A stretch of 64,000 bases of DNA from Streptomyces sp. NBC_01244 (GTDB taxonomy: Bacteria > Actinomycetota > Actinomycetes > Streptomycetales > Streptomycetaceae), in NCBI RefSeq assembly GCF_035987325.1, contig NZ_CP108488.1, positions 558,001 through 622,000 on the forward strand, in the 5' to 3' direction. Below the pieces are notes generated by a model. The model had not been told where the DNA came from. It ran no database searches and worked only from the letters and a program-made list of their open reading frames with translations. Each line of letters opens with the position of its first letter. Positions within the stretch are counted from its first letter, which is position 1. Shown one piece after another: positions 52,071 through 59,906 of this stretch. A program made the position numbers and the translations under genes.

Positions 52071-52445
52071 GTGGCCGTCCTCAGCACGATCCTCGTGATC
52101 CTCGGCGCCTGGTGCGCCGCCAGCGTGGTCACCGCGGCCCTGTACGCGGCCCTGCGCCGCCTCCATGTCCGCCGCCAGCGGGTGACAGCAGCCCTGCCGG
52201 ACGCCGCGCGTGCCGCGCGGTGCGCCGGGCCGGGCGTGCGTACGGGTCGGCCCGGCCTTCCCGGTCAGTCCGCTCACTCGGGGCCTTCCGGTCGCTCCGG
52301 ACACGCGGACGGCTCCGGACACGCGGCGCGCTCCGGTCACGCGGACGGCTCCGGCCACGCGGACCGCCCCCGCCGCCCCGCTCACCCGTCCGGCCGTTCC
52401 GGCTGGGGACGCAGGGTCCCACCGCCGGACCTCCAGGCGGGCTGA
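52071..52445 (+). CDS. Small membrane protein with Ser/Gly/His repeat tail
   Basis: 124 aa; GTG 52071 follows GAGGAGTCCCC. One N-terminal helix (AVLSTILVILGAWCAASVVT), a basic cytoplasmic stretch (RRLHVRRQR), then low complexity with four SGHADG-like hexapeptides coded by an 18-bp repeat. Function unknown. 127 bp after nadE. Confidence 0.6.
   Translation: MAVLSTILVILGAWCAASVVTAALYAALRRLHVRRQRVTAALPDAARAARCAGPGVRTGRPGLPGQSAHSGPSGRSGHADGSGHAARSGHADGSGHADRPRRPAHPSGRSGWGRRVPPPDLQAG
52294..52365. repeat. 18-bp tandem repeat, four units
   Basis: GCTCCGGACACGCGGACG and three close variants, encoding SGHADG, SGHAAR, SGHADG, SGHADR in the small membrane protein. Confidence 0.85.
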
Positions 52446-52473
52446 GCGTCACGATCCGTGTTTGGCTGACCGC

Positions 52474-54045
52474 ATGACGTCCGCCAGCGGAACCTCACCC
52501 GGCCCGATGTCCGAAGCCGTGCCCCGGCCCGCCGACGGCGCACCGGCGGGCCCTCCCGATCCCCGGCGCTGGTGGGCGCTGGCCGTGATCGGGCTGGCCC
52601 AGCTGATGGTCGTGCTCGACGCCACGATCGTGAACATCGCGCTCCCCTCGGCCCAGCGCGATCTGGGGATGTCGGACGGCAACCGGCAGTGGGTGATCAC
52701 CGCTTACTCGCTGGCGTTCGGCGGGCTGCTCCTGCTCGGCGGGCGCCTCGCGGACCTCATCGGCCGCAGGCGGGCGTTCGTCATCGGCCTGAGCGGCTTC
52801 GCCCTCGCCTCCGCCCTGGGCGGCGCGGCGAGCGGACCGGGGATGCTCTTCGCGGCCCGGGCCCTGCAAGGGGTCTTCGCCGCGCTCCTCGCGCCGTGCG
52901 CCCTGTCGCTTCTGGCCACCACCTTCGACACCCCCAGGGAACGCGCCAAGGCCTTCGGCGTGTTCGCGGCGATCGCGAGCGGCGGCGGCGCCGTCGGCCT
53001 GATCGCCGGAGGCCTGCTCACCGAGTACCTGAACTGGCGCTGGTGCCTCTACGTGAACGTGACCATCGCCGCGATCGCGGTCATCGGCGCCTTCGCCGTC
53101 CTGCGCGGCACGGGACGTACGGGGGCGAAGCTCGACGTCCCGGGAGCGGTCCTCGGATGCGGCGGACTCGTGGCGATCGTCTACGGGCTGAGCGAGGCCG
53201 AACCGCGCGGCTGGTCCGACGGCCTGGTCATCGGCCTCCTCGCCGGCGGTACCGCCCTGCTCGCCGTGTTCGCCTGGTGGCAGACACGAGCGAGCGACCC
53301 CATGCTCCCGCCGCACATCATCAGGGACCGGACGCGAGCCGGCTGCCTCGTCACCATGGCCCTGGCGACCATCGGCCTGTTCGCCCTGTTCCTGTTCATG
53401 ACCTACTACTTCCAGCTCGTCCTCGGCTACTCCCCCGTCAGGACCGGGCTGGCCTTCCTCCCCATGACCCTGGCGACCATCACCGGGGCCACCCAGGTTT
53501 CCGCGCGCTTCCTCGACCGGCTCGCCCCCCGCTCACTGATCGTCCCCGGGCTGCTCCTGGCCACCCTGGCCCTGGTCCTGCTCACGCGGCTGACGGTGGA
53601 CTCCGCGTACGCGACCCATGTGCTCCCCGCGATGCTGGTCCTCGGGTTCGGCATGGGCCTGGTGTTCATGCCCGTGATGTCGACGGCCACCCAAGGCGTG
53701 GCGCGGAGGGACTCCGGGGTCACCTCGGCCACGGTCAACACGGCCCAACAGGTGGGCGGGGCGATCGGAACGGCGCTCCTCAACACCATCGCCAGCACGG
53801 CCGCGACGGCCTACGTCGCCGCGCACCTCGCGGGTCCGGCGGAGTCGGCCGACCGCGTCCCCGGGTCCCCGGCGCAGCGGTTGATCGAGGCCCAGGGCTT
53901 GGTGCACGGCTTCGGGGTCGCGCTCTGGTGGGCGGCCGGCATCATGCTCCTGGGCGCCGTCGCGGCCGCCGTCATGGTCACCGCCCCTGCGCCGGCGCTC
54001 CGCCGCGAGGTGCCGGGCGCGGCGGTCGCCGCTCCGACGGCCTGA
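52474..54045 (+). CDS. MFS drug-efflux transporter, DHA2 type
   Basis: 523 aa, about 14 helices. Motifs: QLMVVLDATIVNIALPSAQR (motif D1), WVITAYSLAFGGLLLLGGRLADLIGRRRAFVIG (motif A), RALQGVFAALLAPCALSLLA, GGAVGLIAGGLLTEYLNWRWCLYVNV (motif C), and the C-terminal RRDSGVTSATVNTAQQVGGAIGTALLNT typical of EmrB/QacA-type pumps. Proton-coupled export of drugs. Convergent with the TetR gene at 54070; that TetR belongs to the monooxygenase divergently, not to this pump. Confidence 0.93.
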   Translation: MTSASGTSPGPMSEAVPRPADGAPAGPPDPRRWWALAVIGLAQLMVVLDATIVNIALPSAQRDLGMSDGNRQWVITAYSLAFGGLLLLGGRLADLIGRRRAFVIGLSGFALASALGGAASGPGMLFAARALQGVFAALLAPCALSLLATTFDTPRERAKAFGVFAAIASGGGAVGLIAGGLLTEYLNWRWCLYVNVTIAAIAVIGAFAVLRGTGRTGAKLDVPGAVLGCGGLVAIVYGLSEAEPRGWSDGLVIGLLAGGTALLAVFAWWQTRASDPMLPPHIIRDRTRAGCLVTMALATIGLFALFLFMTYYFQLVLGYSPVRTGLAFLPMTLATITGATQVSARFLDRLAPRSLIVPGLLLATLALVLLTRLTVDSAYATHVLPAMLVLGFGMGLVFMPVMSTATQGVARRDSGVTSATVNTAQQVGGAIGTALLNTIASTAATAYVAAHLAGPAESADRVPGSPAQRLIEAQGLVHGFGVALWWAAGIMLLGAVAAAVMVTAPAPALRREVPGAAVAAPTA

Positions 54046-54069
54046 CGGGGCCGGCGTGACGGGCGGGGC

Positions 54070-54768
54070 TCACGGGCCCTGCGGGGCCGGCCGCGCGGTC
54101 GGCGGGAGCAGGGTCGTGGCGATGCCCGCGAGCACCGCCGCGAGGCCCGCTTCGAAGCCGGCGTCCTGGTCGCGGAACATCTCGGGGCCCGCCTCGGCCG
54201 TCAGCGGGAAGCCGGCGAGCCGTTCGGCGCGGGCCTCCAGGTCGTAGCCCTCACCGTCCGAGCCGGGCAGCGGGCCCATCGACTGCTCCTCGATCACGTA
54301 CCCGATGGTGTAGCTGTAGACGGTGAACCAGGCCCGGGCAGCCCCGGCGGCCGTGAAGCCGCCCGCGACGAGCGTCCGCAGATGGCCTTCCATCGGAGCG
54401 GCGTAGCTCATGTCGGTGAAGTGCGTACCGCTGTAGACCTTGGCTCCGTCCCGGTAGCGCAGCAGGTGCCCCCTCAGGCCCCGCATCGCGGCCTCCAGTG
54501 CCCGCACCCAGTCCCGGGGCGGACGGGCCGCGTCCAGGTCCGCCGTCATCCGGCGGAACATCTCGGTGGCCATCTCGTCGAGCAGGGCCTGCTTGTCCTT
54601 GAAGTGCCAGTACAGGGCGGGCGCCTTGACGTCCAGCTCCTTGGCGATGGCCCGCAGGGTCAGCCCCTCCAGCCCCACCTCGCCGAGCAGGCGCAGGGCG
54701 GTGGCGGCCACCGTCGCCCGGTCGAGCCGGGCCCGTTCGGGTTTCGCTTCTCGTTCTTCTTTCACCAC
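54070..54768 (-). CDS. TetR repressor with tetracycline-repressor-type C-terminal domain
   Basis: 232 aa, GTG 54768. Helix-turn-helix LRLLGEVGLEGLTLRAIAKE, LDVKAPALYWHFKDKQALLD matches the classical TetR DNA-binding domain, and the C-terminus (DGAKVYSGTHFTDMSYAAPM, TVYSYTIGYVIEEQSMG) the TetR_C family that binds tetracyclines or related polyketides. Divergent from the FAD monooxygenase with two identical operators in the gap and early coding sequence. Confidence 0.92.
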   Translation of the reverse strand: MVKEEREAKPERARLDRATVAATALRLLGEVGLEGLTLRAIAKELDVKAPALYWHFKDKQALLDEMATEMFRRMTADLDAARPPRDWVRALEAAMRGLRGHLLRYRDGAKVYSGTHFTDMSYAAPMEGHLRTLVAGGFTAAGAARAWFTVYSYTIGYVIEEQSMGPLPGSDGEGYDLEARAERLAGFPLTAEAGPEMFRDQDAGFEAGLAAVLAGIATTLLPPTARPAPQGP

Positions 54769-54769
54769 C

Positions 54770-54799
54770 TTGACAACTTAACAGCGTTAAGCACATTCT
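54770..54799 (+). promoter_or_regulatory. Promoter of the FAD monooxygenase
   Basis: Perfect -35 TTGACA (54770-54775), 18-bp spacer, -10 CATTCT (54794-54799), then 7 nt to the ATG: a leaderless transcript. The first operator fills the spacer, so repressor binding would block polymerase. Confidence 0.8.
54777..54791. promoter_or_regulatory. TetR operator O1
   Basis: CTTAACAGCGTTAAG, perfect 6-bp inverted arms around AGC, between the -35 and -10 boxes. Confidence 0.85.
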
Positions 54800-54806
54800 C
54801 GTACCC

Positions 54807-56255
54807 ATGACCGCACTTAACAGCGTTAAGGAAATCGGAGCTCCCGACGTGCTCGTCGTCGGCGCCGGCCCCACGGGACTCGCCCTGGCCCTCGACCTCA
54901 CCCGCCGCGGCGTCCACGCACTGGTCGTCGAGCGGGCCGACGCCCTCTTCCCCGGCTCTCGGGGCAAGGGGCTTCAGCCCAGGACCCTGGAGGTCTTCGA
55001 CGACCTCGGAGTGGGGGACGCGGTACGGGAGGCGAGCGCCCACGCACCGATCGGGCGGATCTGGCAGGACGGCAGGCCCGTGGGCGAGCACGACATGCTC
55101 GGAGACGCAGGCGTCGGCGGCCCCACGGACACCGAGCCGCATCCGCGGGCCCGGCTCCTGCCCCAGTGGCGCACCCAGGAGATCCTGTTCGAGCGCCTCA
55201 CCGGGCTCGGCGGCCGGGTCCGCTTCGGCGCCGCCCTGACCGGCTTCGACCAGGACGCCGACGGGGTGAGCGCGCACCTCTCGGACGGCAGTACCCTGCG
55301 CGCCGCTTACCTGGTCGCCGCCGACGGCGGCCGCTCCACCGTCCGCAAGGCCCTGGACATCGGCATGACCGGCGAGACCGTGGATCCCGCACCGATGGCC
55401 GTGGCCGACGTCCGGCTGCGCCCCGGCGCCCTGGACCGCGACCACTGGCACCTGTTCCCGGGAGCGGACGGCGGCTTCGCCGCGCTGTGCCCGCTGCCCG
55501 GCACCGACGAGCACCAGTTCGTCGCGCGGACCGAGGCTTGCGACGCCCTCGAGATCCCGGCCGCGGTCGCCGCCCTGACCCACCTGAGCGCCGAGGACGT
55601 CATCGAGGTCCGGTGGGCCTCCGACTTCAGGCCCCGCGCCGCCATGGCCGACCGGTTCCGCGCCGGCCGGGTGCTGCTCGCGGGCGATGCCGCCCACGTG
55701 CACTCCCCGGCCGGCGGCCAGGGCCTCAACACCAGCGTCCAGGACGCCTACAACCTCGGCTGGAAACTCGGACAGGTGCTGCGCCACGGCGCGGACCCCG
55801 CGCTCCTGGACACCTACGAGCAGGAACGTCAGCCCGTCGCCGCGCACGTACTGGGCCTGTCCACGCGGATCCACCGCGGCCAGGCGGAGCGCGGCGACGC
55901 CACCCGCCAGCTCGGCCTGGGCTATCGGGGCGGCCCCCTCTCCGAAGGGGCCGCGGGCGCGCTGGAGGCCGGGGACCGGGCCCCCGACGGCCCCCTGCCG
56001 GACGGGCGCAGGCTCTTCGACCTGTTCCGGGGGCCGCAGTTCACGCTGCTGGCCGTCGGCACGGATGCCGAACTGCCGCCCGTGAGCTCGGAGTTCCTGC
56101 ACGTCCACCGGATCGGACCGTACGAGCCGTACGGCAAGGGGCTCTTCCTGGTCCGGCCCGACGGGTACGTGGGCTGGGCGGGCGAGGACGCGACCGGACT
56201 CGTGCGCTACCTCGCCCGCCTGGCCCGCCCCGGCTCACCCGCGACGGCCGGCTGA
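54807..56255 (+). CDS. FAD-dependent monooxygenase (group A hydroxylase, TetX/Rox-like)
   Basis: 482 aa. FAD Rossmann motif VLVVGAGPTGLALALDLTRRG, substrate-side GSRGKGLQPRTLEVFDDLG, DG motif LVAADGGRSTVRKAL, and GRVLLAGDAAHVHSPAGGQGLNTSVQDAYNLGWKLG (GD motif), plus a short thioredoxin-like C-terminal domain. This class hydroxylates aromatic polyketides or inactivates antibiotics such as tetracyclines and rifamycins. ATG 54807 is at the leaderless +1. Codons 4-8 (LNSVK) are formed by operator O2. Regulated by the divergent TetR. Confidence 0.92.
   Translation: MTALNSVKEIGAPDVLVVGAGPTGLALALDLTRRGVHALVVERADALFPGSRGKGLQPRTLEVFDDLGVGDAVREASAHAPIGRIWQDGRPVGEHDMLGDAGVGGPTDTEPHPRARLLPQWRTQEILFERLTGLGGRVRFGAALTGFDQDADGVSAHLSDGSTLRAAYLVAADGGRSTVRKALDIGMTGETVDPAPMAVADVRLRPGALDRDHWHLFPGADGGFAALCPLPGTDEHQFVARTEACDALEIPAAVAALTHLSAEDVIEVRWASDFRPRAAMADRFRAGRVLLAGDAAHVHSPAGGQGLNTSVQDAYNLGWKLGQVLRHGADPALLDTYEQERQPVAAHVLGLSTRIHRGQAERGDATRQLGLGYRGGPLSEGAAGALEAGDRAPDGPLPDGRRLFDLFRGPQFTLLAVGTDAELPPVSSEFLHVHRIGPYEPYGKGLFLVRPDGYVGWAGEDATGLVRYLARLARPGSPATAG
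54816..54830. promoter_or_regulatory. TetR operator O2 inside the monooxygenase coding region
   Basis: Exact second copy of CTTAACAGCGTTAAG, 39 bp from O1, covering codons 4-8 of the monooxygenase. Confidence 0.85.
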
Positions 56256-58191: not shown

Positions 58192-59415
58192 TCAAGCGGT
58201 CCGGGCGGCCCCCTCGAGCAGCAGCCGCGCGGCCACGGTCGTCCCGTCGGTGCGGACCGCCGGGGCCGCGGCGGCCGCACGGGCGCGGGTCTCCGGGGCC
58301 AGGGCCGTGTGCAGTGCGGCCGACAGGGCCTCGGCGGCAGGGGCCGGGCCCTCGTGGGCCGCGCCGATGCCCAGGTCGGTGACCCGGCCGGCCCAGTAGG
58401 GCTGGTCCGCCCCCTGGGCCAGCACCACCTGGGGCACACCGGCCAGCGCGGCGGTCGTCGTGGTGCCCGCGCTGCCGTGGTGCACGACGGCGGCCACCCG
58501 GCGGAAGAGCGCCTGATGGTTGACCTCGTCGACGAGGAGGCAGTCGTCCCGGCCGTCGGCCAGGGCCAGTTCGGCCCAGCCCCGGGAGACGACCGCACGG
58601 CGGCCCCGCGCCCGGATCGCTTCGACGGCCGCCCGCGCGACCCCTTCGAGCGCGCCCTGGGGCATGCTGCCGAAGCCCAGGTAGACGGGCGGGGGGCCGT
58701 CATCCAGGAACTCCACCAGCTCGGCGGGGAGCGGGCGTTCGTCCGGTGCGCACCACGCTCCGGTCTGCACCACGCCGAGTGCCGTCGGCTGCCACGGGGA
58801 GAGGAAGGGGTCCGCGGCCAGCCACGGGTGGGCGGTGAAGGCGTAGTCACGGACGGAGTCCACCGGCGCCAGGCCGGCCGCCGTCCGCAGGGTGTTGAGC
58901 GTCTCGCCGAACATGGCGTCCGCTATCCGGGCGTCCTGGTCCCACAGCGCCAGGTTGTCGGTGGCGTCCGGCGGCAGCGGTTGCCCCCGCCGCGCGGGCG
59001 GCCGCCGGTGGGGCGACGGCAGGCTGACCGGCTGGTGGCTCGCGTGCACGTAGCGCAGACCCAGCTTCTCGGCCACCGACCGCGCGCCCGCGGTGACCGG
59101 CAGCGGACCGGTGGCCACCAGCACGTCCGCCCCCTCGGCGGCCGCGGCGACGATGTCGAACTGCGCGGTCATCAGATCAGCCGCCCGCCGGGCCAGGCCC
59201 TCCGCCGATCCCGGCGTCACCGAGGTCACCAGCGGGCGCACCGCGCTGCCGGCCGGCAGCGATTCCACGCCGAGCCCGGCCAGCCGTACCGCGAACTCCT
59301 CGTCGGGCGGTGCGCACATCCGCACGTCCGCACCGAACTCCCGCAACCGCACCGCCAGCCCCGCCATCGGCTCCACGGCCCCGCGCGACCCGTACGTCGA
59401 CAACACCACACGCAT
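58192..59415 (-). CDS. MGT-type glycosyltransferase, candidate rifamycin glycosyltransferase
   Basis: 407 aa, ATG 59415 with GGGAG upstream. GT-B enzyme: MRVVLSTYGSRGAVEPMAGL (glycine-rich acceptor domain), PPVYLGFGSMPQGALEGVAR, and the donor site CLLVDEVNHQALFRRVAAVVHHGSAGTTTTAALAGVPQVVLAQGADQPYWAGRV with HHGSAGT. UDP-glucose use is likely for this class. An 18-bp palindromic element almost identical to the rifamycin-associated element lies 84 bp upstream, which in actinomycetes marks rifamycin-inducible inactivation genes, including the glycosyltransferase Rgt. Family is certain; the rifamycin role is inference from the element. Confidence 0.88.
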   Translation of the reverse strand: MRVVLSTYGSRGAVEPMAGLAVRLREFGADVRMCAPPDEEFAVRLAGLGVESLPAGSAVRPLVTSVTPGSAEGLARRAADLMTAQFDIVAAAAEGADVLVATGPLPVTAGARSVAEKLGLRYVHASHQPVSLPSPHRRPPARRGQPLPPDATDNLALWDQDARIADAMFGETLNTLRTAAGLAPVDSVRDYAFTAHPWLAADPFLSPWQPTALGVVQTGAWCAPDERPLPAELVEFLDDGPPPVYLGFGSMPQGALEGVARAAVEAIRARGRRAVVSRGWAELALADGRDDCLLVDEVNHQALFRRVAAVVHHGSAGTTTTAALAGVPQVVLAQGADQPYWAGRVTDLGIGAAHEGPAPAAEALSAALHTALAPETRARAAAAAPAVRTDGTTVAARLLLEGAARTA

Positions 59416-59498
59416 GCGGCAACTCCCATTCCGGTATGTGGGCAGAGGCGAGGGGCCGTGGGTCGCGGCCCCGGCCGACGATTCTTCGACACGCCCCC

Positions 59499-59516
59499 GG
59501 GCTTGCCGCAAGCCCC
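59499..59516 (-). promoter_or_regulatory. Rifamycin-associated-element-like palindrome
   Basis: Leftward strand reads GGGGCTTGCGGCAAGCCC. The published 19-bp RAE, as I recall it, is GGGGCTTGCGGCAAGGCCC, so this differs by loss of one G. The inverted repeat GGGCTTGC/GCAAGCCC is perfect with a 1-nt centre. It is 84 bp before the glycosyltransferase ATG. Confidence 0.7.
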
Positions 59517-59906
59517 CTGCGCCCCTGTATGTTGATCATGGTGGGGGGTGTACCGTGCGCGACGGATTCGAGACGATCGTCGGCCTGGCGTGCGGCCCGC
59601 CGCGAACCTCGGGCAGTGTCGCCCGCCGTGTGGATCCGCTCACACGCGAAGCACCCTCCCCGCGCGACCACGGGGACGCTGCGCGACCCGGCCGCCGACG
59701 TCTCGCCAGGTGCCGCGGGGGCGGCCGCTGCCGCGCCCACCAGGGGACGGGCTCCGCGGACAGCCGGATGCGCCGGGCCTGCGGCCTCGGCGGGGGCGGC
59801 GCGGTTCACGGGGGCACGGGGCAGGGATCCACTCCTGATGTATAGGGACAAAAAGGCCCAACATGGGTGATAGGGGGAAAGTCACTCGATGTCGATGGAT
59901 ACCGGA

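What the first reader, a model, noticed from the sequence alone, without database searches (positions are those of the whole stretch)
58192..59516. RAE-like element upstream of an MGT glycosyltransferase: likely rifamycin resistance gene
Seen: a perfect inverted repeat, GGGGCTTGCGGCAAGCCC on the gene strand, 84 bp before the start codon. Known: the rifamycin-associated element (about GGGGCTTGCGGCAAGGCCC) controls rifamycin-inducible inactivation genes in actinomycetes, including glycosyltransferase (rgt), monooxygenase (rox), phosphotransferase and helicase genes. Inference: this enzyme glycosylates rifamycins and is induced by them. The one-base shorter right arm makes the repeat more symmetric than the published form.
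Basis: partly seen in the sequence, partly recalled or inferred. Interest (0 to 1): 0.78.

Follow-up and report, generated by a model that had tools for sequence, protein, structure and literature searches.

The report
Rifamycin-response element before a glycosyltransferase
A soil bacterium carries a glycosyltransferase gene behind the same promoter element that precedes its other rifamycin-resistance genes, so it very probably belongs to that known defence set, although its enzyme group lacks a residue its relatives share and its substrate is unproven.

Summary
The palindrome is real (19-bp element at 59498-59516, minus strand) and is very probably a genuine rifamycin-associated element (RAE). 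The exact 15-bp core occurs at three places in the 10.0-Mb genome: here, before rox and before helR. In 61 genomes of the genus all 67 distinct exact-consensus sites precede a helR, rox, rgt or rph relative. A profile built only from rox, helR and rph promoters scores this site 21, and the next best place in the window -113. Of 80 relatives of the gene, 66 have an RAE upstream. Membership of the rifamycin regulon is strongly supported. That the enzyme glycosylates rifamycins is less certain: its score on NCBI's Rgt model (467 bits, cut-off 800) hardly exceeds that of vancomycin GtfB (453), and it lies in a separate clade in which 16 of 16 members lack Asp13 and share two unusual histidines. 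The site is one of the more degenerate RAEs; 6 of 15 other clade members lack one. The 'one-base shorter arm' is really two substitutions at unchanged spacing. Side result: two -10-like hexamers on opposite strands lie symmetrically about the RAE centre.

The parts
58192..59415 (-). Rgt-like GT-B glycosyltransferase gene, 407 aa
   Evidence: NF000354 466.7 bits over residues 1-406 (cut-off 800 not met); Pfam EryCIII-like_C and Glyco_transf_28; solved relatives GtfB, GtfA, GtfD
59498..59516 (-). RAE, GGGGCTTGCGGCAAGCCCG (17 of 19 consensus letters); perfect palindrome 59499-59515
59506..59511 (-). TTGCGG inside the RAE, -35-like, gene-ward (role inferred)
   Evidence: 19 bp from the hexamer at 59481-59486; read; module statistics
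59481..59486 (-). AAGAAT, gene-ward -10-like hexamer (module position +31 to +36; role inferred)
   Evidence: xAxxxT at this position in 27 of 29 class-wide modules and 104 of 104 rgt modules
59528..59533 (+). TATGTT, opposite-strand -10-like hexamer (module position -17 to -12; role inferred)
   Evidence: TAxxxT at this position in 28 of 29 class-wide modules and 96 of 104 rgt modules
59503..59508 (+). TTGCCG inside the RAE, -35-like, opposite strand (role inferred)
   Evidence: 19 bp from the hexamer at 59528-59533; read
59524..59529 (-). TACAGG in place of the usual gene-ward box TATAGC
   Evidence: TATAG in 94 of 104 rgt modules but 0 of 3 in window, L030 and L145

Best explanation
The gene belongs to the genome's rifamycin regulon (this gene, rox, helR). 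Its promoter holds a somewhat degenerate but correctly spaced RAE module. Rifamycins raise transcription through the RAE (published for other RAE genes, inferred here). The induced enzyme is a GT-B glycosyltransferase that most likely puts a sugar on a hydroxyl of a rifamycin-type ansamycin and so inactivates it, alongside Rox (degradation) and HelR (release of the drug from RNA polymerase). Shown here: the element, its spacing, its shared use with rox and helR, the enzyme family, and purifying selection. Inferred: induction, substrate, sugar, and how a clade without Asp13 performs catalysis (perhaps through His124 or His127).
For: Exact cores only before this gene, rox and helR in the genome. 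RAE upstream of 66 of 80 named relatives and, with the window, 44 of 57 family members in 101 genomes; reversed-sequence controls never reach 15 of 19. 67 of 67 exact sites in 61 genomes before helR, rox, rgt or rph relatives. Independent promoter profile: 21.0 here, next best place in the window -113.3. At four sites helR follows rgt within 1.5 kb of the RAE. dN/dS 0.30-0.32 against L030 and L145. Published: RAE needed for rifampicin induction of helD in M. abscessus (passage, PMC10719064); Rgt glycosylates rifamycin C23 (passage, PMC7283461).
Against: The site scores lower than 97 of 106 other rgt promoters; 6 of 15 other clade members lack an RAE; the Rgt model's cut-off is not met and GtfB scores nearly the same; Asp13 is missing. 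In the own-genome search with one mismatch allowed, the backwards-read control pattern had 4 hits against 6 rows (three palindromic places, each also found on the other strand), so the count alone is weak; the location of the hits carries the argument.
Confidence: 0.65

Rival explanations
1. The RAE is real and the gene still responds to rifamycins, but the enzyme has drifted to another acceptor (another ansamycin or aromatic natural product) or another way of catalysis, and the clade is losing the RAE.
For: All 16 clade members lack Asp13 and share His124 and His127; 6 of 15 others lack an RAE; protein as close to the Rgt model as GtfB is.
Against: Nine of the 15 others keep an RAE at the expected place; window clade and Rgt-like clade share a 43-row group without GtfA/B/D (SH-aLRT 91).
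Confidence: 0.22
2. The RAE is a relic: too many positions of the module are changed, and the gene is no longer induced by rifamycins.
For: Two substitutions in the 19-mer, TACAGG for TATAGC, poor outer flanks; score below 97 of 106 rgt promoters.
Against: All spacings and both -10-like hexamers kept; the core CTTGCGGCAAG is intact; still 134 bits above any other place in the window.
Confidence: 0.1
3. Chance palindrome or an unrelated operator.
For: High G+C sequence gives many near matches: 15-mer with up to 3 mismatches 5 found, 4.6 expected; 4 backwards-control hits genome-wide with one mismatch.
Against: Same element at the same place in relatives; unique in the window under an independent profile; the two other exact sites lie before rox and helR.
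Confidence: 0.03

Closest known systems
Rgt1438, rifamycin-inactivating glycosyltransferase (NCBIfam NF000354)
   Same: Same GT-B family over the full length (467 bits); RAE upstream, as reported for rgt (passage, PMC10719064).
   Different: Below the 800-bit cut-off; separate clade from the high-scoring Rgt-like proteins; lacks Asp13. The Rgt1438 sequence itself was not compared.
RAE regulon of actinomycetes (rgt, rox, helR, rph, arr)
   Same: RAE core, spacing and flanking hexamers; rox and helR of this genome carry exact RAEs.
   Different: Here the 19-mer has two changes and the outer module is poorly kept.
Glycopeptide glycosyltransferases GtfA, GtfB, GtfD
   Same: 54% (GtfB), 53% (GtfD) and 49% (GtfA) identity; GT-B family.
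   Different: They have Asp13; they are biosynthetic enzymes (recalled); they fall outside the 43-row group, though inside the RAE-bearing family, with weak support.
Bacillus subtilis helD/pps dual-promoter rifampicin alarm (PMC12802891; abstract and passages)
   Same: Rifampicin-induced resistance genes with an antisense promoter; a possible parallel to the two opposite -10-like hexamers.
   Different: There the promoters converge and no RAE is present; the authors say actinobacterial genes carry the RAE instead.

Membership tests
RAE regulon | 19-bp RAE palindrome upstream | tested here: met
   17 of 19 letters, perfect 17-bp palindrome, 83 nt before ATG
RAE regulon | Element shared with known rifamycin-resistance genes of the same genome, and not scattered before others | tested here: met
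   Three exact cores: this gene, rox, helR
RAE regulon | Element conserved before orthologues | tested here: met
   66 of 80; 44 of 57 with the window; 9 of 15 in its own clade
RAE regulon | Induction by rifamycins through the RAE | not testable with these tools
   needs expression data
Rgt (NF000354) | Curated equivalog cut-off of 800 bits | tested here: not met
   466.7 bits; but none of 101 genomes passes it, best 708, so the cut-off is strict
Rgt (NF000354) | Closer to Rgt than to glycopeptide glycosyltransferases | tested here: inconclusive
   467 against 453 bits for GtfB; shared group without GtfA/B/D at SH-aLRT 91, weakly contradicted; Rgt1438 itself not in the tree
Rgt (NF000354) | Glycosylates rifamycin C23 | not testable with these tools
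   needs an enzyme assay
Gtf-type GT-B enzymes | Asp13 (catalytic role recalled, not read) | tested here: not met
   Ala13 in the window; D in 95 of 110 RAE-bearing relatives (window included among the 110), 16 of 26 without RAE, 3 of 3 Gtf
Macrolide glycosyltransferase MGT (TIGR01426) | Curated cut-off of 260 bits | tested here: not met
   33.4 bits

The most novel reading that the evidence does not exclude
The RAE is not simply an operator: its palindrome supplies a shared -35 for two overlapping back-to-back promoters, one towards the gene (TTGCGG-19-CAGAAT) and one away from it (TTGCCG-19-TANNTT), with -10-like hexamers exactly 21 bp from the dyad centre on either side. Competition of RNA polymerase, or a repressor over both, at this pair would sense polymerase inhibition by rifamycins; this could be why the reviews read here still speak of an unknown factor. 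In the window both hexamers survive while the gene-ward TATAGC box is lost.
Probability: 0.15. Interest if true: 0.7.

Novelty: new member of a known kind. Interest (0 to 1): 0.35.

Why it matters
It adds a naturally degenerate RAE and an Asp13-less glycosyltransferase clade to the rifamycin resistome of soil actinomycetes. The comparison made on the way shows that conservation reaches well beyond the 19-bp palindrome in rgt, rox, helR and rph promoters, and gives a concrete, testable picture of how the still unexplained rifamycin sensing could work.

Tried and rejected
(1) The FAD monooxygenase at 54807-56255 as a second rifamycin gene: its best solved relatives include rifampin monooxygenase, but it scores 230 bits against a cut-off of 800 on NF033145 and passes NF004832 instead (548, cut-off 476); the true rox lies elsewhere behind an RAE. 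(2) arr in the genome: no match; rph: two pieces of 24 bits only. (3) GtfA/B/D nested inside the RAE-bearing family: seen in FastTree with weak support, not in IQ-TREE; not claimed. (4) Structure prediction was not run: solved relatives at about 54% identity exist, and coordinates of a model cannot be measured here. (5) Literature: searched. I cannot say whether the longer module or its symmetry is already described there; the passages I read do not mention it. (6) Asp13: looked for in PMC8124905 (no occurrence) and PMC8987122 (no occurrence of Asp13); its role stays recalled.

Rows left out before counts: L147 (223 aa) from the trees; L146 left out of the clade table as a copy of L017; L149-L153 used only as outgroup (in one search three of the five); the sites L166, L203 and L217 (classified later), the duplicate L218, the second reading of the palindromic L212 and the three window-clade rows were kept out of the profile sets; L222 lacked full flank. 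One search used 63 of the 144 proteins.

Full report
1. The observation. On the minus strand CAGGGGGCTTGCGGCAAGCCCGGGGGCG lies before an ATG at 59415, with 83 nt between the palindrome and the ATG. The perfect palindrome is 17 bp (59499-59515) and is not expected by chance (0.06 matches per shuffled window at up to 2 mismatches). The 15-mer with 3 mismatches allowed is not informative (5 found, 4.6 expected).

2. Own genome. The core GGGGCTTGCNGCAAG with up to one mismatch gives six rows, which are three palindromic places, each exact on one strand. The other two are GGGGCTTGCGGCAAGGCCC before a rifampin monooxygenase (857 bits, cut-off 800) and before helR (1246 bits, cut-off 750). arr was not found and rph only as two 24-bit pieces.

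3. Relatives. Of 80 named relatives, 66 have at least 15 of 19 RAE letters within 350 bp upstream (less where the contig ends); 23 are perfect. With the window that is 67 of 81, and the same upstream sequences read backwards reach 14 at most. In 101 genomes of the genus, 57 family members of at least 374 bits appear by my count of the table; 44 of 57 have an RAE (25 of 30; 12 of 17; 6 of 9; and the window).

4. The element's other genes. The exact pattern GGGGCTTGCNGCAAGNCCC, which the window's own degenerate site does not match, has 68 rows in 43 of 61 genomes, 67 distinct sites; the backwards control has none. Best protein match in the 1.5 kb downstream: helR 19, rox 19, rgt 15, rph 14 (identities 63-100%; one rph confirmed by NF041857 at 1657 bits). 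At four of the rgt sites (L171, L175, L178, L179) helR begins within the same 1.5 kb, and three further sites (L162, L202, L203) carry a short rgt-like piece beside helR or rph. Class-wide, 74 of 246 genomes have exact sites. Thirty loci were fetched; L222 lacked flank. Of 29, 27 match one of the four proteins, three of them weakly (L238 over 40 residues, L239 and L243 at about 45% to rox). L248 lies before an Arr, and L241 faces what looks like an ABC-transporter ATPase (by eye).

5. The module. Conservation reaches beyond 19 bp. A 109-column profile from 47 rox, helR and rph promoters gives the window site 21.0, the next best place in the window -113.3, and 106 other rgt promoters 108.8 on average (sd 50.3). 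The window site is lower than 97 of the 106: a true but degenerate copy. It has two substitutions in the 19-mer, TACAGG for TATAGC, and poor outer flanks. Spacings are unchanged, so the 'one-base shorter right arm' is better described as substitution.

6. Symmetry. In the 29 class-wide modules xAxxxT occurs gene-ward at +31 to +36 in 27 and at no other position from +20 to +58 in 8 or more; TAxxxT occurs on the opposite strand at -17 to -12 in 28 and at no other position scanned in 6 or more. Both hexamers begin 21 bp from the palindrome centre and lie 19 bp from a TTGC(G/C)G on their strand. TATAG, the gene-ward reading of the upstream box, is kept in 19 of the 29; within the genus, however, it is about as well kept as the opposite-strand hexamer (94 against 96 of 104 rgt, 18 and 18 of 18 rox, 14 against 16 of 16 helR, 13 and 13 of 13 rph), so only the class-wide set and the window, L030 and L145 tell the two readings apart. 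That the hexamers are promoters is inference. Published work describes two gene-ward promoters at mycobacterial helD, the RAE overlapping the -35 of the second, and an unknown RAE-binding factor (passages of PMC10719064 and PMC12802891); this is a point against a two-directional reading, or at least not for it.

7. The enzyme. It is a GtfA/B/D-like GT-B enzyme, not an MGT proper (33 of 260 bits). The Rgt model gives 467 bits, GtfB 453; no protein in 101 genomes passes the 800-bit cut-off (best 708), so the model separates poorly. In a 63-row quick IQ-TREE the window's clade (16 rows, SH-aLRT 99) and the high-scoring Rgt-like clade lie in a 43-row group (91) without GtfA/B/D; at least nine changes of RAE presence are needed. 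A FastTree of more rows placed GtfA/B/D inside the RAE-bearing family with weak support. All 16 clade members lack Asp13 (11 Ser, 3 Ala, 1 Ile, 1 Thr), against D in 95 of 110 RAE-bearing proteins, 16 of 26 without RAE and 3 of 3 Gtf enzymes. That Asp13 is the catalytic base of the Gtf enzymes is recalled. His124 and His127 are present in 16 of 16 and in 6 and 2 of 120 others; they are candidates for a replacement base, no more. dN/dS of 0.30-0.32 against L030 and L145 argues for a working protein.

8. Verdict. A bona fide RAE: about 0.95. Inducible by rifamycins: about 0.8. Glycosylates rifamycins: about 0.6, the best single guess. It should not be filed as a proven Rgt. The system is known; this is a new, somewhat divergent member.

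Noticed in passing
window 52210-56255: A TetR-like regulator (54070-54768, minus), an EmrB-type MFS exporter (52210-54045) and a PRK06184-type FAD monooxygenase (54807-56255) stand together; the monooxygenase resembles Rox but is not one by the curated cut-off.
   Followed up: partly
RAE modules in L154-L218, positions -45 to -28 and +50 to +64: By eye from the consensus: an AAGGAG...CTCCTT inverted repeat upstream and CCTGCGGAAA downstream recur in rox, helR, rph and many rgt promoters; both are missing in the window.
   Followed up: partly
L171, L175, L178, L179; L162, L202, L203: helR lies close behind rgt after one RAE in four loci; in three others a short rgt-like piece stands beside helR or rph, as if rgt had been lost there.
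   Followed up: partly
L241 379-1305 (minus), RAE at 1501-1519: An exact RAE faces a gene that looks like a drug-type ABC-transporter ATPase, not one of the usual rifamycin genes.
   Followed up: no
L035, L038, L043, L054, L072, L112, L127: A whole subclade of the family lacks an RAE (11-12 of 19 letters at best) although it keeps Asp13 in the member inspected (L035); how it is regulated is unknown.
   Followed up: no
L049, L074, L080: Three Mycobacterium proteins near the base of the family have Ala13 and no RAE, apparently an independent loss of Asp13.
   Followed up: no
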